Shown here one piece after another: positions 28,951-63,482 of a stretch of DNA of 64,000 nucleotides; the stretch's first letter is position 1; every line of letters begins with the position of its first letter. The notes beneath the pieces were generated by a model, which was not told where the DNA came from, made no database searches, and saw only the letters and a list, made by a program, of their open reading frames with translations. Source of the DNA: Salminus brasiliensis (lineage: Eukaryota > Chordata > Actinopteri > Characiformes > Bryconidae); contig NC_132900.1 of the NCBI RefSeq assembly GCF_030463535.1, positions 24,173,456 through 24,237,455 on the forward strand, given 5' to 3'. The translations under genes and the position numbers were made by a program.

Positions 28951-30380
28951 ATGGATTCCTTCAACACTGTGCTGCGCTTTCTGACAAATCAGAAAACCAC
29001 CATCGGCTATGGAGTCATGGCCATTGCCACCATTGGTGGGGAAAGGATTTTTTCACTTTTTTCCTTCCAGTGTCCGTGTAACACTCAACAGAACTTCACT
29101 TATGGTATGACGTACCTGCTTGGGCCTGCTGTGGTGCTGCTGACAGTGGGTCTATTCCTTAGTACGGGCCTGTGGCGCCTCTATACAGGCTGCTGTTTGA
29201 ACCCCATGAAGCTGTGCCCCAAGGGAAACTGCATAGGATGTGCATCCATTTTCCTGAAGGTCCTGGTGGGCGCTCTGGTGCCTCCCATCATGTGGTTGAG
29301 CGTGGCCCTGCTTAACGGAACCTTCTACGAGTGTGCAGTCAGTGGGCTGGAGGATAAAATGATCACTGACCTTTTCTGTAAGTTCAGGAACAGCACTTGC
29401 AAGGAGGAGTTGGCCAAGGTGCCATGCAAAACGTCCAATTTACCTGCAGCCGAGACCAACGAGCTCCTGCTAATGCTCAGAGCGCAGTCCCAGGTGAGTG
29501 CACTTCATTTGCATGTACATGTAGAGAAGAGAAATATATAATACAATGTGAAAATCTTTCGTAAAGATCTGTAGAGCTGTTTAGGTACAGGGGTTTCTAA
29601 TAAAGTGGCCAGTGAGTGGGAGCACAAGGTATGGGTTTCTAATAAAGTGGTCAGCAAGTGGAAGCACAAGAAAGGGGTTTCTAATAAAGTGGTCAGCAAG
29701 TGGAAGCACAAGCAAGAGATTTCTAATAAAGTGGCCAATGAGTAGAAGCACATGGTAGGTGTTTCTAATAAAGTGGTCAGTGAGTGGAAGCACAAGGTAG
29801 GGGTTTCTAATAAAGTGGTCAGGAGTGGAAGCACAAGGTAGGGGTTTCTAATAAAGTGGTCAGGAGTGGAAGCACAAGGTAGGGGTTTCTAATAAAGTGG
29901 TCAGGAGTGGAAGCACAAGGTAGGGGTTTCTAATAAAGTGGTCAGTGAGTGGAAGCACAAGGTAGGGGTTTCTAATAAAGTGTTTATTTGTGATTTCAGA
30001 TCCTGGGCTGGATCCTCATTATAACATCAGTTCTGACTGGGCTGATTGGGACCTGTTACAAAAACTGCCGCTCTCAGGTGAGTTACCTACAGCTCACCTT
30101 CTGGAAGATATACATGCAAAAAGAAAAGGAGAAGTTCGACTCATTCGCAGACGACTATGCCACCAAGCTGGCAGAGCGGAACCTGAAGAGCTTCTTTGAG
30201 AATCAGGATCCGGAACCTTTCCCTTTTCCCAATCACACGGCCTGGGAGCAGGTCTCGGCTGTGTACACGTTCAATCACAGCGAGCAGTGCTACAGCACCC
30301 TGCAGAGATACGTGGAGCGGCCTGATCGAGATTACAGCACAGAGAAGACCCCGCTGCAAATGGAGCACAGCCTAGAGTAA
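28951..30380 (+). CDS. calhm5: CALHM5-type calcium homeostasis modulator channel
   Basis: CALHM proteins form large-pore oligomeric channels in the plasma membrane; the physiological role of CALHM5 is not settled. Two exons, 28951-29493 and 30000-30380, join in phase 0 (CAG|gtgagt ... ttcag|ATC) into 307 aa; human CALHM5 is about 309. Four membrane segments are visible: about residues 17-38, 52-73, 102-121 and 182-204. The family CPC motif is at C41-C43, with C82, C128, C143, C150 and C159 in or near the loops. NGTFYEC (residues 122-128) contains an N-glycosylation sequon. WLSVALLNGTFYECA, KVSYLQL-like (SQVSYLQLTFWK), ERNLKSFFEN and PFP...AWE match CALHM5 best, though CALHM6 is a close relative. 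ATG at 28951 is chosen because it gives the family start (MDSF versus human MDAF); an in-frame ATG at 28924 would add nine residues. The only intron carries an AATAAA-bearing minisatellite. Next gene downstream is RWDD1. Confidence 0.93.
29585..29985 (+). repeat. About 41-bp minisatellite with AATAAA in each unit (CALHM5 intron)
   Basis: Ten units of 'ttctaataaagtggtcag' plus 'tggaagcacaaggtagggg', with lengths of about 39-45 bp. Each unit carries AATAAA followed by a GTGG-rich segment on the sense strand of CALHM5. Open frames on the minus strand (LLTTLLETP repeats) are artefacts. Confidence 0.95.
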
Positions 30381-32989: not shown

Positions 32990-33285
32990 ATCCATAAAGC
33001 AGGGGCACTCTGGAGCAGCCGTGAACATTTAGGGCCAGGGTCACTGTGCACTACAGGGGTAAATAGCCCCTCTGTGGGGAAGTGGAGCTGTGTTCTTTGG
33101 CACGATGGAAATCCAGTCAATACCTTTGGGATGAGTTTGAGTGGCTAACAACAACTAACAACATCTTTTGACCTCACTGATGCTCTCACTCCTGGGGCTA
33201 AATACTATCAAATCATCTTCAAATCCTCCACCATCTGGTGTACAGTTACTGTAGCAAAGAACGACAAACTTCCTATGAACACTCT
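32990..33285 (+). mobile_element. Tc1-derived non-autonomous element, copy B
   Basis: Shares 'agcagccgtgaacat', 'acctttgggatgagttt', 'gacctcactgatgctct', 'caccatctgg' and the 'agcaaagaacgacaaac' block with copy A at 18945. Diverged, no coding capacity. Confidence 0.55.
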
Positions 33286-33629
33286 GGTTTCTATGTGTGA
33301 CAAAGTTATTGAACTGAAATTCTGGGCTGCTCTGAGTGGCTCTTCTTTAGTGCTTTGGTCACTGGTCTCAGTCGAGGAAGCAGCTAGCCACAAGTTTCTA
33401 TAATGCAGCCGGCGCACAGACAGGAAACCCAGAGGAGGTTTACAACCACATAAAGGAAGGAAATGCAGACTTTGATATGAGGGTACTTGTTTCCGTCAGC
33501 AAAGAGACAACTTTTCACATTAAGAGTAAACTGTGAGTGTGCAGATTCTTAAGGTTGCTAAATGTTGTTGCATGTATGTTAGGGATTTAAAGAATTTGAA
33601 CTGCAGTGGGCGCATTTGTATTTGCATGT

Positions 33630-34975
33630 AGTTGTAGTAATACCAAACAATCAGCACTCAGTAGCAGTAATGTCAACCAATCAGCACTCAATAATAGAGA
33701 TGCCAACCAATCAGCACCCAGTAGCAGAAGTTGCCAAATAATCAACCTTCAATAACAGGAATGCCAACTAATCAGCACCAAGTAACGGAAATGCCAACCA
33801 ATCAGCACTCAGTAACGGAAATGCCAACCAGTCAGCACTCAGTAACAGAAATGCCAACCAATCAGCACTCAGTAACGGAAATGCCAACCAGTCAGCACAC
33901 TTAGCAGCAATGTAAATCAACATTCAGTAACAGTTATACCAACCAATCAACATTCAGTAGCAGTTATACCAACCAATCAGCATTCAGTAGAAGTGCCAAC
34001 CAATCAGCACCCAATAGCAGAAGTTGCCAACCAATCAGCACTCAGTAACAGAAATGCCAACCAGTCAGCACACTTAGCAGCAATGTAAATCAACATTCAG
34101 TAGCAGTTATACCAACCAATCAACATTCAGTAGCAGTTATACCAACCAATCAACATTCAGTAGCAGTTATACCAACCAATCAGCACCCAATAGCAGAAGT
34201 TGCCAACCAATCAGCACTCAGTAGCAGTAATGGCAACCAATCAGCACTCAGTAACAGAAATGGCAACCAATCAGCACCCAGTAGCAGAAGTTGCCAACCA
34301 ATCAGAACTCAGTAGCAGTAATGGCAACCAATCAGCACTCAATAACAGGAATGCCAAGCAATCAGCACTCAGTAGCAGTAATGCCAACCAGGCAGCACCC
34401 AGTAGTAGAAGTTGCAAACTAATCAGCCTTCAATAACAGGAATGCAAACTAATCAGCACCCAGTAGCAGAAGTTGCCAATTAATCAGCACTCAATAATAG
34501 AAATGCCAACCAATCAGCACTCAGTAACAGAAATGCCAACCAATCAGCACTCAATAATAGAAATGCCAACCAATCAGCACCCAGTAACAGAAATGCCAAC
34601 CAATCAGCACTCAGTAACAGAAATGCCAACCATTTAGCACTCAGTAACAGAAATGCCAACCAATCAGCACCCAGTAGTAGAAGTTGCCAACTAATCAGCA
34701 TTCAGTAGAAGTGTCAACCAATCAGCACCCAGTAGCAGTAATGCCAACCAATCAGCACTCACTAACAGAAATGGCAATCAATTAGCACTCTTTGGCAGCA
34801 ATGTAAACAATCAACATTCAGTAGCAGTAATACCAACCAATCAGCATTCAGTAGAAGAAGTGCCAACCAATCAGCACCCAGTAGCAGAAGTTGCCAACTA
34901 ATCAGCACTCAGTAACATGAATGCCAACTAATCAGCACTCAGTAGCAGTAATACCAACCAATCAACACTCAACTG
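33630..34975 (+). repeat. About 30-bp minisatellite composed of CCAAT boxes
   Basis: More than 40 units of the form 'ccaaccaatcagcactcagt' followed by 'aacagaaatg', with 30-31 bp periods and variants (ctaatcagc, cagtcagc, caatcaaca). About 26 units keep an intact ACCAATCA core. The 30-bp unit keeps frames open on both strands (NQHSV-type and LLLSADWLAF-type repeats), but these have no other sign of coding. It lies about 0.8 kb upstream of the RWDD1 start codon. Confidence 0.97.
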
Positions 34976-35785
34976 TTTATACAGTCATTGGTTTAAACTG
35001 TTTAACGCAGTTCAGTAGGTTACTAAAATATTATACTATTTTATTACATTTACAGATGCAGTGTTTGTATGATTGCACAATGACACAAACAGATTTTTAA
35101 TCCGTTAGCAAATATTTTCCTATAGAGAAATAAATGAACCAGACAGTCGTAGAAAGTTTTAAACGTGACCAGCTGATGGCGTCGTTTTGCACTTACCCTC
35201 GCCACAGTGCAAAATGCCCACGTGTGCCCTAACTAGGACACCTAGCTAGGGCGTTGAATGGCTTGAATTGGGTTCTAGTTATCTAGCTATGTCATAAGGG
35301 CGTAAACTTTAGTTATTTAAGATAACCTCTTACTGGTTACATTTCCCTCACTATTGCAATATAAAAATATGTTGTGCAAATTATTTTATTGGCGTTAGCA
35401 AAAGGGAGATGGCTAGACTGTGTGCTAAATTTGCAAGCTAGCTAGTGCTATCTAGCAATGCATATACATGCATTGTGGCTTCGGCTAACGAAATAAAATG
35501 CATACATATTTTTTATTGTTTAACGCCGCTTTGTAGAGGTTGCAATCCTTCAAAATTCAGAAAAGTAGTAGTCTATGAAGAACAGATTTTTTTTAGCAGA
35601 CAAAACTAAAATCTTGTAGTGTACACTTAAAGTAAGCCCCTAAACGTTTGTGCTGGGATCCGGTTGCAGTCGCAGGCAATAGAAGTCGATACGGGACAAC
35701 GTCGATTGTAGCCTCTCTTAGCTCACAAGCACGTTTTTGTCCGTTGGTCAAAGCGGGGCTGGTGGATGGACAGCAGGGAAATAAA

Positions 35786-38700
35786 ATGACCGACTACGGA
35801 GAGGAGCAGCGGAACGAGCTGGAGGCGATAGAGTCCATTTATCCTGACTCGTTCACAGGTTAGATTGTACAGTTGTAATGTTCGTGTTAGCTAAGGCACA
35901 CTAGCTCTGCTGGCTCTCCCACTCTTCCCTACTGGAGTGCCAGACAAGCGGCTTGAGCTTTCGTAACCTGGTTAAGTTTGATATGTTGTTAAATATGAGT
36001 AGAGTATATTTTAAAACGTTATAAATACTAACAGGTTATTCCTATGACTGTTGTATGTAGCTAGCTAGCTGTAGGTAACGTAGTTGCCAGTGTTGTAGTA
36101 GCTGAAAAGTGATTGTTGAAATTTTCCGTTCCACCTTAACTGGTGCAGTGGTTCGTTAGCTAGCTAGCTACATGTAACTGCTGCACCATTTAAGGTGGAA
36201 CGGAAAATTCTAAAAAGAGCCTGTTAATGTGGCAGCTAACGATGAGACAGTTCTATCACGTTGTACGCTATTTATTCAGTTAATCGTTGTAAATGTTTTC
36301 TCCTCTCTCCAGTTCTCTCTGAAGAGCCCACAAGCTTCACAATCACAGTCACCTCAGACGCTGGAGAAAACGACGAGAGTAAGTCAATTGCCAAAGGTCC
36401 TGGTAACCGTCCTGACCTGCACATTTTCTACTTAAATTACTCCCTAAACCAACACATTTACCTGGTCCAGATCATAAGGTCGGGTTTATTTAGGAATTGT
36501 AGACTATATGTCGATATTACGTATCATGAAGTTTAACACTGTGTCCACCCACTGTCCGCTCTATTAGACACTCCTAGGTGTTCACACACTTCAGCAGCAC
36601 TGCTGTGTCAGATCCAGTCATACCAGCGTAACACACAAACACACCACCACCATGCCAGTGTCACTGCAGTGCTGAGCATGACCCACCACCCAAATAATAT
36701 CTGCTCTGTGGTTATATTGTGGGGTCCTGCCCATTGAAGAACAGTGTGAAAGTGGGATAACAAAGTATGCAGAGATACAGATGGGCTACAGTTTGCAGGG
36801 TGCCCCTTTCCTTTTTGTTATCTGTATTTCTGTCTCTCTCTCTCAGCGGTTCAGGTGACGTTAAAGTTCACCTATGTGGAAAAATACCCAGATGAGCTCC
36901 CACTTTGGGAGATCGATTCCCAAGAAAACCTTGAGGATTCGGACACGGAGGACATCCTGACGCTTTTAAAGCAACAGGTATGTTTTTCAAGCACATGAAC
37001 ATACATAACATGTGGCGTGATGATAAAGCTTCATCCAGTACCTTTGGGATGAGCTGTAGTGTCGAAACTAATCATCCAACATCAGTACCAGACCTCACTG
37101 ATGCTGAAATTCTCTTCACAGCAATGTTCCAACATCTAGCGTAACGCAGGGAGCAGTGGAGCTGCATTCTCTTGAGCTTAATAGACATAAACACATTTGT
37201 TCTATTACAGTTACAATGAGTTGGGTTTCTGTTGTTCTGTAGGCAGAAGAAAATCTGGGCATGGTCATGATCTTCACGCTGGTGACTGCTGTGCAGGAGA
37301 AACTTAACGAAATAGTCGACCAGATGAAGAGCAGAAGAGAAGAAGAGACTAGGAGGCGAGAGAGGGAGGCTGAAGAGGCAGAGAAAGTAAAGTTCTTACA
37401 GCTCTCCTCAATTAATGACCAAATGCACCAGAATGAAGGAGGATTATTTACTGCTTTGTTTATAATAGTAGTGGTATCAAATAATAAAAAAATGATAATG
37501 TGTAATGATACACATGTTTTTAGGTATGGTATGATTTCCTGTTCTGAGAAAGATTTGAGTCAATATTATTTTAGATACTAAAGTTGTGTTGATCCCATTG
37601 AGCTATTCAGTGCTGCCCTCTAACTAAATAACCCCCCAGAATAACAGCCTCTAAAACAGGGGTCATTAGAAGTCCAGCACAGGGTTCATCCGTTCTCACC
37701 CCTTTTTGGAAAGCTGCTTTCAGATTTATAGGTTTGATCATTGGTTGTAATAACACTAATACTAGTAATAACTGTTATTACTACTGTTATGAAATATATG
37801 AAATAAGTACACTTTAAGATATAATTCAATTCAACTTTGTCATTAAACTAGTACAGGGTTGTACATTATAACGGAAGATGTGCTGAGATAGTAGATAGTA
37901 GAAACACTAGTGCAAACACTAATTGCAGTCAGTATTTATTTATTGCATAAACAGTAACTGCAGGTTAGGGGTAGAATTTAAAGTGTAAACAGTTTCTCCA
38001 TCAGGTAAGAAAAAATGAAATGGTGTGGTTAGTTTTTGAGCCACTAGTTAAATCTAGGACTTAATCTTTCTATTTCTCCTTTCAGCAGGCCTTCCAGGGA
38101 ACTGTGGTCACGATAGAGAATTTCCTGTCATGGAAGGCGCAATTCGAGCAGGAGATGGCGGAACTGAAGAGGAAAAAACAGAAGGAGGAGGAGCAGTCTG
38201 GAAAGAATAAACTCACAGGTAATCCACTCTATTTTACGTAACTACTTTCAGTACTTTAGAACTAGTTTGATTGTTTACAGTCCTATCAGAATATTATGAC
38301 CACCTCTGGTTTGGAATGGCAAATAAAAAAAGCATTGGAAAATGTCAGAATCTTTGTGACATCTTCTTAATATCCAGAATGAATGTCTAACATTTAATGT
38401 CCAGAAATAAAGCTATATGAAGTTAAAATTCATTTGTTTTGTTTGTTTTTTACTATAAACACATTTGACTTTAGCTTTGTTAAAAAAAAACCCTTCTATT
38501 CCACCCCATATAAGTTGTTATTAAATAATATAACTGTTTACTAATAATAGCTAATTGATTAAGTAATTAGTGAGTCAAGAGTATGAACTGTAACCTGTTT
38601 TGTTCTGTTGCAGGAAAGCAGCTGTTTGAGAGGGATCATAACCTTGACACCTCAGATATCCAGTTTCTGGAGGACGGTGAGGGGCTTCAGCATTTTATCA

Positions 38701-46387: not shown

Positions 46388-49300
46388 ATGGCAAGTCCAG
46401 GAAAAGAGAGCTATCGAATGAAAAGCTACAAGAATAAGGCCCTGAACCCACAGGAGATGAGGAGGCGAAGGGAGGAAGAGGGGATTCAGCTGCGGAAACA
46501 GAAAAGAGAAGAACAGGTGGGTAGAGAGGAGGATTGCCACTTGAGAATGTCTTCTGGGTTTGTCAGACGTGAGAAGGTCCAGAACGTGTTACTTTGGAGC
46601 ATTTGAGCAAAATCAAAGTTTGTAAAGGTTTGATCATTTTCATCCCGAAAAGTACAGAACAGCATCAAATGTTTCAGCAATGAAGACTTTTTAAAAAGTA
46701 ACTTTTTTTTTACTCCAAAAAAAAAGTAAAAATGTAATCTAATGTAGTAATGATGACGTCAGTGAGTGTGAATCTCCATCGCCAGCTTTCCTACTAATCA
46801 GCACTCGGTTGCAGTAATGCTAGCATCTCAGCTGCTGTAGAAAAATGGAAATATACTTTTTTTTTTTTTTTATCTCCTTTCACCCCCATTCATTTGAGGT
46901 CTTGCTTGCACTCACTGGACATGGTATAGTGTGTTTCAGAATTACAAATAATCTCTAAACAACTTAGCTTTTACTTATCACAGAACAAGCAAAAAGCAGT
47001 GTTACTTTCTGTTTTGTGAAAGTGAAAGTAGAACAGAGAGATTCCTAGATCATTCAGATGCTTATTCACGCACCTCTGATGCCTGTGCCTTTGGACGCAC
47101 ACCATTGATTTAATGTTTGTCAGAAGGGTTGCTGGTAGGGATGGCCTGATCAGTGTTTTTGGGGAAGATGCTGATTGCCAAACGTCTTTGCCAAACGTTT
47201 GATTGGCTGAGCAGTGTGTGCTAGTTCTGCTGTGTTCTGATCAACTCTGATGTGCTGAGTGATTCTCGAGAGGGGTTTTCATTTAGTCATGATAAAAGTC
47301 TTTACTCTGCTTCCCCCGAGGCAGTTATACACATTCTACAAATATTTGTGTTTCAGTCAAACACTGTGAAATCATCAGACTGGCTCTGCACATGGAGTGA
47401 ATTTCTACACTGTATTTATCGGACTTCTGCAGCTGTGTGTGAGGTCCATATTGCTATCTAGCAGTTAAATGAGCATCTGCACAGTATAGTGACTAAGGAG
47501 GCCTTTCACCACACTGCAGCAACTCACCAAATATGGATCAAATATGACCTGACCAGCTCTCAGGGTCAGCTAGAAAGATTTGCAGCATATTTACATATTT
47601 AGGCTGCTAATCCGCCGAAGCCGATACATAGCCAGTGGAGACTTCCATCTCTAGTTGCTGGCACGTAACTGAAGCTTGGTTGTTGCAATTTCAACACCAG
47701 AGATAACTGATAGGTTGACCTCTTGTCAGTGAAAGTTTGCAGAACAGTGAGCTAATGTAATAAATGAAATTGTGTCTAAAACAGGACATTTTATTATTTT
47801 CTGTATATTATTAAATTCAGTAAATATACAGTAATTATATATGTGTGGAAGTGTGGCTCTGTAAAGAAGAGCACTTATTCACACTTAGAAATATCAATGC
47901 ATGTAATTTGCCCAGGGGTGCACACCTTTTTTGAATCAATGTTGGTGCACTCTAACTAAAGTTCTTTGAAAGCCCTAAGTATCATTTTTAAAATGTGTTG
48001 CTGAGCCTGTGTGAAACATGGTGATCGATCTTGATTCCTGAACTGCAGCTCTTCAAGAGGAGGAATGTTTATGTGCCGCCGGGTGACGAGTCTATGCTGG
48101 AGTGCCCCATTCAGGATCCTGATGTCAGCTCCACCGTCCCTATATCTGGGGTAAGTTTGGTATTAATAGTCAGAATTGCACAAAATGACTGAAACAACTA
48201 TTTTTTAGTCATTTTTATTCAGTATTTTTCATACTGTTCAAGTGTTATTTAAGATATCAGTTAGAACAGAGGTGGTGACCTGGGGCCGAGGTCCAGCACA
48301 GTTTGCTGAGTTCCCTGCTTTATCACATGGCTAAACCTGGCTGTTGAGGTGAAGCAGATGTGCTTGAGCAGGAAAAGCACTGTGCAGAGCCACTGTATTG
48401 ATTGATTCAGTTCCACTAGCAGGATACGCTTTAATGAAGGACTGATTAAATAATATATATACATAAAATGTAGGATGGGAACTGCAAATGCTGGCTGTCC
48501 TTCAGAAGAACACCTAAAATGGTTTGTATTAGTGCTTACTGTTGAATATTTAGTGTTTTTGCTGCTGTTTTTTATTGCAGGAGGGAGTTATAACTCAAGA
48601 CATGGTTCAGATGATCTTTTCTGAAGACCCAGACCAGCAGCTAATAGCGACCCAGAAATTCAGAAAATTACTCTCCAAAGGTTCAGTCTAATCTCTATTG
48701 TGTTTATATTTAAGATGTAAATTATATTTAATTTGTGAAGTCTTCCCCTTATAAAGGTCTAGATGTCTTTATTTGCATTGTGCATTATTTGTCTTTGGGG
48801 AGAAGTTCCATATAGATGTTGTATCAGTATCTTCTCACAGTTCCTAAATTGGTGCATTCCTAGTATGGAGTTCAGACATCGCATAGATCATAAATATGAA
48901 GTTAATTTGCTTATTGAAAATCCTGTTACCCTATAAAGACAAAAGTATTAGGACACCTGCTCAATAATTGTTTCTTCTGAATTTGAGTTAATCCTACTTT
49001 TCTGGAAGTAACTGGAAGACTACTATGTTTTGGAGCATTGCTGTGAGGATTTGATTGAATTCAGCATGATTACCACCCAAAAAGAAGCACTGACTGGACC
49101 ACAATCATTCCAGAGAACACAGATCTGCTGCTCCATGGCTTAAAGCTGGAGGGCTTTATAGCTTTCTAACCCATGTCTGGTATTTGGCATGGTGCCAATA
49201 GCTTCATGTTTATCTGCTCCAGAGAGTACTATTCTATTGGCCACAGCTATCCACAGGGACTAGACAGGCTGTGTGTACATTGGCATATCTGTGTCAGCAA

Positions 49301-63086: not shown

Positions 63087-63482
63087 GTAAGGTAAAGGTG
63101 CACGTATTTGTCACTGTACACTGTACAGCGAAATGTGTCCTCCGCATTTAACCCATCTGGTAGTGAACACACACTCACACACACACATGTGTTAGGGGCA
63201 GTGAGTACACACACACACACCCAGAGCGGTGGGCAGCCAACTCCAGCGCCCGGGGAGCAGAGAGGGTAGTGAACACACACTCACACACACACATGTGTTA
63301 GGGGCAGTGAGTACACACACACACCCAGAGCGGTGGGCAGCCAACTCCAGCGCCCGGGGAGCAGAGAGGGTAAAGGGCCTTGCTCAAGGGCCCAACAGTG
63401 GCAGCTTGCCGAGCCCGGGAATCGAACCCACAACCCTGTTATCGATATCCCGGAGCTCTAACCGCTGAGCCACCACTGCCTC
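63087..63482 (-). mobile_element. tRNA-derived SINE with an internal 105-bp duplication
   Basis: Read on the minus strand, it starts GAGGCAGTGGTGGCTCAGCG with an A-box-like TGGCTCAGCGGTTAGAG, then a B box GGTTCGATTCC, then the conserved 'cccttgagcaagg' body. The segments 63161-63266 and 63267-63370 are near-identical tandem copies including the CACACA tracts. It ends with 'tcactgtacactgtacagcg' and 'gtaaaggt'-type tail sequence. Confidence 0.88.

What the first reader, a model, noticed from the sequence alone, without database searches (positions are those of the whole stretch)
33630..34975. A 1.35-kb minisatellite made of about 26 intact NF-Y-type CCAAT boxes, 30-31 bp apart
Each repeat centres on AACCAATCAGC, which fits the NF-Y consensus (RRCCAATSRS), and successive boxes face the same way at 30-31 bp, close to three helical turns. 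NF-Y-regulated promoters often carry several CCAAT boxes spaced about 30-35 bp. Dozens in one array, about 0.8 kb upstream of the RWDD1 start codon and 3 kb after CALHM5, could act as an enhancer, a decoy sink for NF-Y or a nucleosome-depleted domain. Many units have lost the box (ctaatcagc, cagtcagc), so it may also be neutral.
Basis: partly seen in the sequence, partly recalled or inferred. Interest (0 to 1): 0.7.

Follow-up and report, generated by a model that had tools for sequence, protein, structure and literature searches.

The report
Dispersed fish minisatellite carrying CCAAT boxes
A run of about 45 thirty-letter repeats upstream of a fish gene does hold many protein-docking "CCAAT" motifs, but the same repeat lies in dozens of other places in this genome and often loses the motif, so it looks more like ordinary repeat DNA than a built switch.

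Summary
Window 33630-34971 holds 45 units of mostly 30-31 bp; 26 of 45 keep an in-register CCAAT and 22 of 45 fit RRCCAATSRS. The unit belongs to a dispersed minisatellite family: an exact 20-mer occurs 61 times in this 1.07-Gb genome (reversed control 0), and the listings give at least 38 loci, enriched near contig ends. The two largest arrays read have almost no CCAAT (1 of 83, 2 of 137 units). In the window array CCAAT changes as often as base-matched linker positions (P=0.67), and the boxes keep no common helical face. Single-unit copies, one in this window (46790-46820), share flanks with each other and with some arrays, so the unit is probably an internal piece of an old dispersed element, amplified in tandem many times. 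Against full neutrality: across 15 arrays the wider AACCAATCAG changes less than expected (P=0.005). CCAAT minisatellites that act through NF-Y are known (human ABO, ERV-9/LTR12), so the functional idea is possible and not new.

The parts
33630..34971 (+). Minisatellite array, 45 units of mostly 30/31 bp, consensus AGTAGCAGAAATGCCAACCAATCAGCACTC, one orientation; 26 of 45 units with intact in-register CCAAT
33871..34219 (+). Multi-unit block present twice inside the array (about 33871-34043 and 34044-34219), a trace of unequal exchange or conversion
   Evidence: unit table; repeat families D3/D4
34501..34680 (+). Dense run of intact boxes at 30-bp spacing (34510, 34540, 34570, 34600; one broken; 34660)
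46790..46820 (+). Isolated single unit of the same repeat, box broken (CTAAT)
   Evidence: score 42, next best outside the array 24, reversed unit at most 20
46640..46880 (+). Stretch around that single unit that resembles the surroundings of single units elsewhere (old dispersed element)
   Evidence: 82% over 55 bp of left flank with L035, E 6e-8, unit not included; left flanks alone score 71 against at most 40 in shuffles; genome search: matches at 9 other places, 4 of them running 35 bp or more beyond the unit
35001..36500 (.). CpG-rich stretch (o/e 0.68-0.89 in 500-bp windows) around the first exon of the RWDD1-like gene; the array lies just outside it
35786..35860 (+). Start of the RWDD1-like reading frame (ATG 35786); gene name from the finding and from recall, Pfam gave no hit for this short ORF

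Best explanation
The array is one member of a dispersed minisatellite family. Its 30-bp unit is probably an internal segment of an old dispersed repeat element, of which single-unit copies survive, one in this window. At many places the segment was amplified in tandem by slippage and unequal exchange, so each array has its own unit variant and length. The CCAAT box sits in the unit by descent; how many boxes an array shows follows from which variant was amplified and how far it decayed. NF-Y binding upstream of RWDD1, if any, would be incidental and not maintained by selection. Shown: family membership, dispersal, array-specific homogenisation, different array lengths in related duplicates, near absence of the box in the two largest arrays read, shared flanks of several single units and some arrays. 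Inferred: that the window array itself came from the element (its own flanks match nothing held), and that it is neutral.
For: 541 matches from 40 scored of 116 candidates, listing capped; 61 exact 20-mers, reversed pattern 0, in 22 loci; at least 38 loci from both. Of 37 on large contigs, 17 lie within 2.5 Mb of the left end and 2 to 6 of the right end, 5.0 expected for both. The nearest unit is in the same array for 89% of 604 units, 10% with shuffled labels. L041, L042 and L043, parts of a segmental duplication, carry 34, 26 and 55 units. L052 keeps CCAAT in 1 of 83 units and L055 in 2 of 137, at 95.7% and 94.2% homogeneity. Window array: CCAAT 12 changes, 11.0 expected, P=0.67; 58% of units intact against 50% from base-matched linker columns, P=0.35. 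Element: flank-only scores L035-window left 71 (shuffles at most 40), L036-L058 left 71 (41), L047-L051 right 85 (28); nhmmer, reversed control empty; window 46640-46880 finds 9 other places.
Against: Over 15 arrays the wider box AACCAATCAG (unit positions 16-25) has 135 changes, 168 expected, P=0.005, the lowest of 30 circular windows; without L052 and L055 P=0.001 (Mann-Whitney 0.009). These are 2 of 9 segment-by-dataset tests, uncorrected. In one search the box is kept better than linker columns at P of about 0.1 or less in 8 of 15 arrays (two at 0.01 or less: L056, L018), against P=1.0 in L041 and L052. L047 keeps 41 of 41 and L048 54 of 56 boxes. The window array's own flanks match neither the element nor other arrays. 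The window array directly abuts a CpG-rich window, as does L056; 10 of 17 arrays have such a window within 1 kb, 7.7 expected from points in the same loci, P=0.13.
Confidence: 0.8

Rival explanations
1. The array is an NF-Y-dependent enhancer or upstream promoter element of RWDD1, working like the ABO minisatellite: several NF-Y trimers bind, keep nucleosomes off and help the promoter 0.8 kb away.
For: 22 of 45 full NF-Y consensus sites; 30-31 bp unit close to the 31-bp direct CCAAT repeats preferred in one class of human NF-Y promoters (PMC4982600 passages); adjacent CpG-rich start region; precedents ABO and LTR12; family-wide deficit of change over the wider box.
Against: CCAAT in this array changes like the linker; the first C of CCAAT has 27 changes over 15 arrays, above the linker mean of 18.9; arrays are not clearly closer to CpG-rich windows than other points of the same loci (10 of 17 against 7.7, P=0.13); the two largest arrays read nearly lack the box; helical phase drifts.
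Confidence: 0.1
2. The family as a whole is a sink for NF-Y: hundreds of sites over dozens of arrays titrate the factor.
For: 351 of 695 units in the 20 arrays read keep CCAAT (summed, duplicates included); sequestration of NF-Y by transcripts of CCAAT repeats is described for LTR12 (PMC11853044 passages).
Against: CCAAT words are common anyway (129 in this window on both strands, 29 of them in the array), so some hundreds of extra sites are few genome-wide (inference); about half of the units lack the box.
Confidence: 0.03
3. Another feature of the unit, centred on AATCAG rather than on CCAAT, is under weak constraint (an unknown binding protein, or a mutational cold spot).
For: AATCAG (20-25) has 71 changes against 95 expected, P=0.014 over 15 arrays; positions 22-25 are the same in all 15 array consensuses, but so are 7 other positions.
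Against: Not significant in the window array alone (P=0.31); several segments tested; the search probes held this core, which favours it.
Confidence: 0.07

Closest known systems
Human ABO gene upstream minisatellite (Kominato 1997, seen only through passages of PMC2988417; 43-bp unit is recalled)
   Same: A minisatellite upstream of a gene (about 4 kb from the ABO start codon), its repeats carrying CBF/NF-Y CCAAT motifs, copy number variable between alleles
   Different: ABO enhancers of four repeats are named and tied to higher reporter transcription; here about 45 units, dozens of loci, no binding data, box decaying
ERV-9 / LTR12 U3 tandem repeats (PMC11853044 passages)
   Same: Dispersed element with short tandem units (about 41 nt, 5-17 copies) that carry CCAAT
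   Different: Those lie inside an LTR, their CCAAT is described as highly conserved and NF-Y binding as validated; here no LTR was identified and the box is often lost
Dispersed vertebrate minisatellites (subtelomere-rich by recall) and satellites grown from tandem repeats inside transposable elements (PMC7004042, title and start of abstract in a search listing)
   Same: Short unit, many separate arrays, array-specific variants, enrichment near contig ends, single-unit copies in a larger dispersed repeat
   Different: The host element is not identified here; the paper named concerns satellites from retrotransposon-derived tandem repeats in a plant journal

Membership tests
Dispersed minisatellite family | Head-to-tail short units, tens of copies | tested here: met
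Dispersed minisatellite family | Same unit at many unlinked loci | tested here: met
   At least 38 loci from the listings; reversed control 0
Dispersed minisatellite family | Array-specific homogenisation and length change | tested here: met
   Nearest unit in same array 89% against 10%; 34, 26 and 55 units in related duplicates
Tandem repeat grown inside a dispersed (transposable) element | Single-unit copies and arrays with homologous flanks | tested here: met
   L035, window 46790, L036 and arrays L058, L051, L047 (flank-only scores); L057 weaker (26.0 bits, unit included, against at most 15.7 for unit-only matches). Most other arrays read show no such flanks
Tandem repeat grown inside a dispersed (transposable) element | The window array itself lies in the element | tested here: not met
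   Flanks W_L and W_R match only themselves
Tandem repeat grown inside a dispersed (transposable) element | Defined element ends, target-site duplication, class | tested here: inconclusive
   GCGCCCTCTAGTG motif 6 times, all within 330 bp of units; no convincing inverted ends (L036 27 against a shuffle maximum of 24)
NF-Y enhancer minisatellite (ABO type) | NF-Y consensus in the unit | tested here: met
   22 of 45 units RRCCAATSRS
NF-Y enhancer minisatellite (ABO type) | Box positions conserved above linker | tested here: not met
   Window array P=0.67 for CCAAT; over 15 arrays CCAAT P=0.20, but wider box P=0.005
NF-Y enhancer minisatellite (ABO type) | NF-Y binding and effect on transcription | not testable with these tools
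   No ChIP, ATAC or reporter data on hand

The most novel reading that the evidence does not exclude
An old dispersed element seeded a CCAAT-bearing 30-bp segment over a fish genome; repeated tandem amplification turned it into ready-made NF-Y clusters, some of which (boxes kept in 41 of 41 or 54 of 56 units, or abutting a start region as at RWDD1) have been taken up as NF-Y enhancers, which would explain the family-wide deficit of change over AACCAATCAG.
Probability: 0.1. Interest if true: 0.6.

Novelty: new member of a known kind. Interest (0 to 1): 0.22.

Why it matters
It is a warning that a striking cluster of factor-binding motifs can be the by-product of tandem amplification: the family around it, not the single array, shows what the motif is worth. 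If some arrays were shown to bind NF-Y, the family would offer dozens of natural replicates with 0 to over 50 boxes each to measure how site number and spacing act in vivo.

Tried and rejected
Helical phasing of boxes over the array: not supported (resultant 0.11 at 10.5 bp per turn, 0.25 at 10.4). A shared element around all arrays by BLAST of flanks: at E 1e-8 only the C27 segmental duplication had shared flanks next to arrays. Comparison of 600-bp flanks of 8 single and short loci found only a shared repeat of L057 and L040 far from the unit. More sensitive searches then found a shared element for a minority. Fold-back structure: only L050 has units in both orientations among the loci scanned. 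Inverted ends around arrays: only a CA-repeat match at L048 passed the threshold. Closeness of arrays to CpG-rich windows: no clear excess. Phage collection: no match, not informative for a fish. Rfam over window 46400-47100: one hit far below its gathering score. Papers: one search by sequence, a 12-mer of the unit, whose 3 hits were seen only in the listing; topic searches on CCAAT or NF-Y minisatellites, satellites and tandem repeats listed no paper on this repeat, judged by titles and starts of abstracts. The box-blind survey of units did not complete.

Rows dropped before counts: L042 and L043 (relatives of L041) and L040, L046, L050 (under 10 units) from the 15-array tests; L018, and L042 and L043 from the final count; units with fewer than 24 letters; C75 from the contig-end test, which assumes 29 chromosomes and bounded lengths for contigs whose size was not shown.

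Ascertainment: 6 of the 25 loci read (L053, L057, L017, L018, L035, L036) were found only by a pattern that contains the box, and the 90-base probe also holds it, so intact boxes are over-represented. Queries and profiles include 24-25 bases of the unit, which lifts their scores; the L035 match and the scores do not.

Full report
What is there. The array runs from 33630 to 34971: 45 units in one orientation, eight of 31 bp, five of 25-29 bp, the rest 30 bp. The unit consensus AGTAGCAGAAATGCCAACCAATCAGCACTC holds AACCAATCAG, which fits RRCCAATSRS. 26 of 45 units keep the in-register CCAAT and 22 of 45 the full consensus. In all, 29 CCAAT lie in the array against a mean of 3.6 and a maximum of 9 in 200 dinucleotide shuffles.

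Surroundings. Two CALHM-type ORFs lie upstream (Pfam Ca_hom_mod, E 8e-64 and 6e-13). Downstream an ATG at 35786 opens the RWDD1-like frame (name from the finding and recall; Pfam found nothing in the short ORFs). CpG o/e is 0.68-0.89 in the 500-bp windows covering 35001-36500 and 0.28 or less in those covering 33001-35000; the unit consensus itself has no CpG. The array sits on the outer shoulder of a promoter-like stretch. Over 17 arrays, 10 have a CpG-rich window within 1 kb, 7.7 expected from other points of the same loci (P=0.13), so closeness to such stretches is not a clear property of the family.

It is not unique. The genome that holds the window (1.07 Gb, 103 contigs) was searched with a 90-base consensus: 541 matches among the 40 of 116 candidates scored, listing capped. 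An exact 20-mer pattern gave 61 sites, none for the reversed pattern, in 22 loci. The listings merge to at least 38 loci. I read 25 of them: 20 tandem arrays (with the window) and 5 places with one or two units; 13 were not read. Of 37 loci on large contigs, 17 lie within 2.5 Mb of the left end and 2 to 6 within 2.5 Mb of the right end, 5.0 expected for both (P 5e-8 on the conservative count, assuming 29 chromosomes). With the 21 loci alone it is 9 left and 1 to 4 right, 2.9 expected, P 2e-4.

How it evolves. Each array has its own unit variant: the nearest unit lies in the same array for 89% of 604 units, 10% with shuffled labels. Three related places on C27 (L041, L042, L043) share flanks in part: L041 and L042 the left flank at 99.0% over 4.1 kb, L042 and L043 the right flank at 99.7% over 3.9 kb, L041 and the others 93.5-93.9% over 230 bp on the right. 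They carry 34, 26 and 55 units, so length changes fast. The window array shows repeated multi-unit blocks. These are the marks of slippage and unequal exchange.

Is the box kept? In the window array, parsimony gives 12 changes at CCAAT against 11.0 in base-matched columns (P=0.67), and 58% of units are intact against 50% expected from linker columns (P=0.35). The two largest arrays read have fixed box-breaking variants: L052 has CCAAT in 1 of 83 units, L055 in 2 of 137, at 95.7% and 94.2% homogeneity. So amplification of an array does not need the box.

Results against that reading. Over 15 arrays the wider AACCAATCAG has 135 changes, 168 expected (P=0.005), the lowest of 30 circular windows; without L052 and L055 P=0.001. 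AATCAG gives P=0.014 and 0.021. CCAAT alone is not significant (76 against 86, P=0.20; 13 arrays P=0.15), and its first C, which NF-Y needs (recalled), has 27 changes, above the linker mean of 18.9. In one search, 8 of 15 arrays keep the box better than linker columns at P of about 0.1 or less, two of them at 0.01 or less (L056, L018; L018 has CCAAT in 14 of 22 but the full consensus in 2 of 22), while L041 and L052 show the reverse. Weak constraint, a mutational cold spot or probe bias could each give this.

Geometry. 30 bp is 2.86 turns at 10.5 bp per turn, so neighbouring boxes rotate by about 51 degrees and the array as a whole has little common face (resultant 0.11; 0.25 at 10.4). A class of human NF-Y promoters prefers direct CCAAT repeats at 31 bp, with further peaks near 41, 52 and 63 bp (passages of PMC4982600). 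The array is near that spacing but does not hold phase over distance.

Where the unit comes from. Four loci hold a single unit (L035, L036, L053, L057) and L017 about 1.7; a lenient scan of 300 bp on each side found no further units above shuffles, except a slight excess right of L057 (26 against 24) and a tie right of L017. Another single unit lies in the window at 46790-46820, its box broken to CTAAT (score 42; next best 24, reversed unit at most 20). Its left flank matches L035 without the unit (82% over 55 bp, E 6e-8; flank score 71 against at most 40 in shuffles). The left flanks of L036 and array L058 score 71 against at most 41, and the right flanks of arrays L047 and L051 score 85 against at most 28. 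nhmmer links the right flanks of L051, L047, L058, L036 and a stretch of L050 (E 2e-8 to 7e-3). A profile of four left flanks finds L057, which was not in it, at 26.0 bits, while unit-only matches reach at most 15.7; reversed sequence gives nothing. The flank-only scores of L057 were not significant on the left. The word GCGCCCTCTAGTG occurs 6 times with at most one mismatch in the loci read, each time within 330 bp of a unit or array, reversed control 0.

Late genome search. Window 46640-46880 matched itself and 10 further pieces at 9 other places. Eight of the 9 cover the unit at least in part, four of these run 35 bp or more past it into the right flank, one has a second piece of left flank nearby, and one place matches left flank only. 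None of the 9 lies within 2.5 Mb of a contig end, unlike many arrays (C28's length is known only by bounds). They were not read, so whether they are single units is not shown. Taken together the unit is probably an internal piece of an old dispersed element that was amplified in tandem at some copies, perhaps more readily near contig ends. The window array's own flanks match nothing held; for it the origin is inferred. The class of the element is unknown.

Comparison with the known. The human ABO gene has an upstream minisatellite with CBF/NF-Y motifs, and alleles with four repeats are tied to higher reporter transcription (passages of PMC2988417 citing Kominato 1997, Irshaid 1999 and Yu 2000). 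LTR12/ERV-9 elements carry 5-17 tandem units of about 41 nt with conserved CCAAT bound by NF-Y, can act as enhancers, and their transcripts can sequester NF-Y (passages of PMC11853044). The array works like those only if NF-Y binds it; by the features tested it is a member of a dispersed minisatellite family.

Verdict. Real observation, ordinary cause most likely, function untested. Interest is low to moderate because the family would be a good natural test set for NF-Y site clusters.

Noticed in passing
G000 contigs C1-C29: Family loci crowd at the left ends of contigs (17 of 37 within 2.5 Mb) far more than at right ends (2 to 6); perhaps a convention of contig orientation, otherwise unexplained.
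   Followed up: partly
window 46790-46820: Single copy of the array's unit inside an old dispersed repeat, 12 kb from the array; similar places elsewhere lie in contig interiors.
   Followed up: partly
window 29589-29982: A second minisatellite, 42-bp unit, 9.5 copies, 91% matches, between the two CALHM-type ORFs.
   Followed up: no
window 36121-36210: Inverted repeat (ATTTTCCGTTCCACCTTAA ... TTAAGGTGGAACGGAAAAT) just after the first exon of the RWDD1-like gene, seen by eye, MITE-like.
   Followed up: no
window 36622-36729: Stretch matching the far left of L036 (nhmmer E 4e-12), another dispersed repeat.
   Followed up: no
L041, L042, L043 (C27 24.64, 24.75, 24.80 Mb): Related places sharing left (99.0%, L041-L042) or right (99.7%, L042-L043) flanks whose arrays differ in length (34, 26, 55 units).
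   Followed up: partly
L050 4347-4571: Units of the family in both orientations side by side, the only such case among the loci scanned.
   Followed up: no
L052 right of the array: The 83-unit array ends at a run of N, so its full length is unknown.
   Followed up: no
window 63159-63372: Tandem duplication of a 104-bp unit, 98% matches.
   Followed up: no
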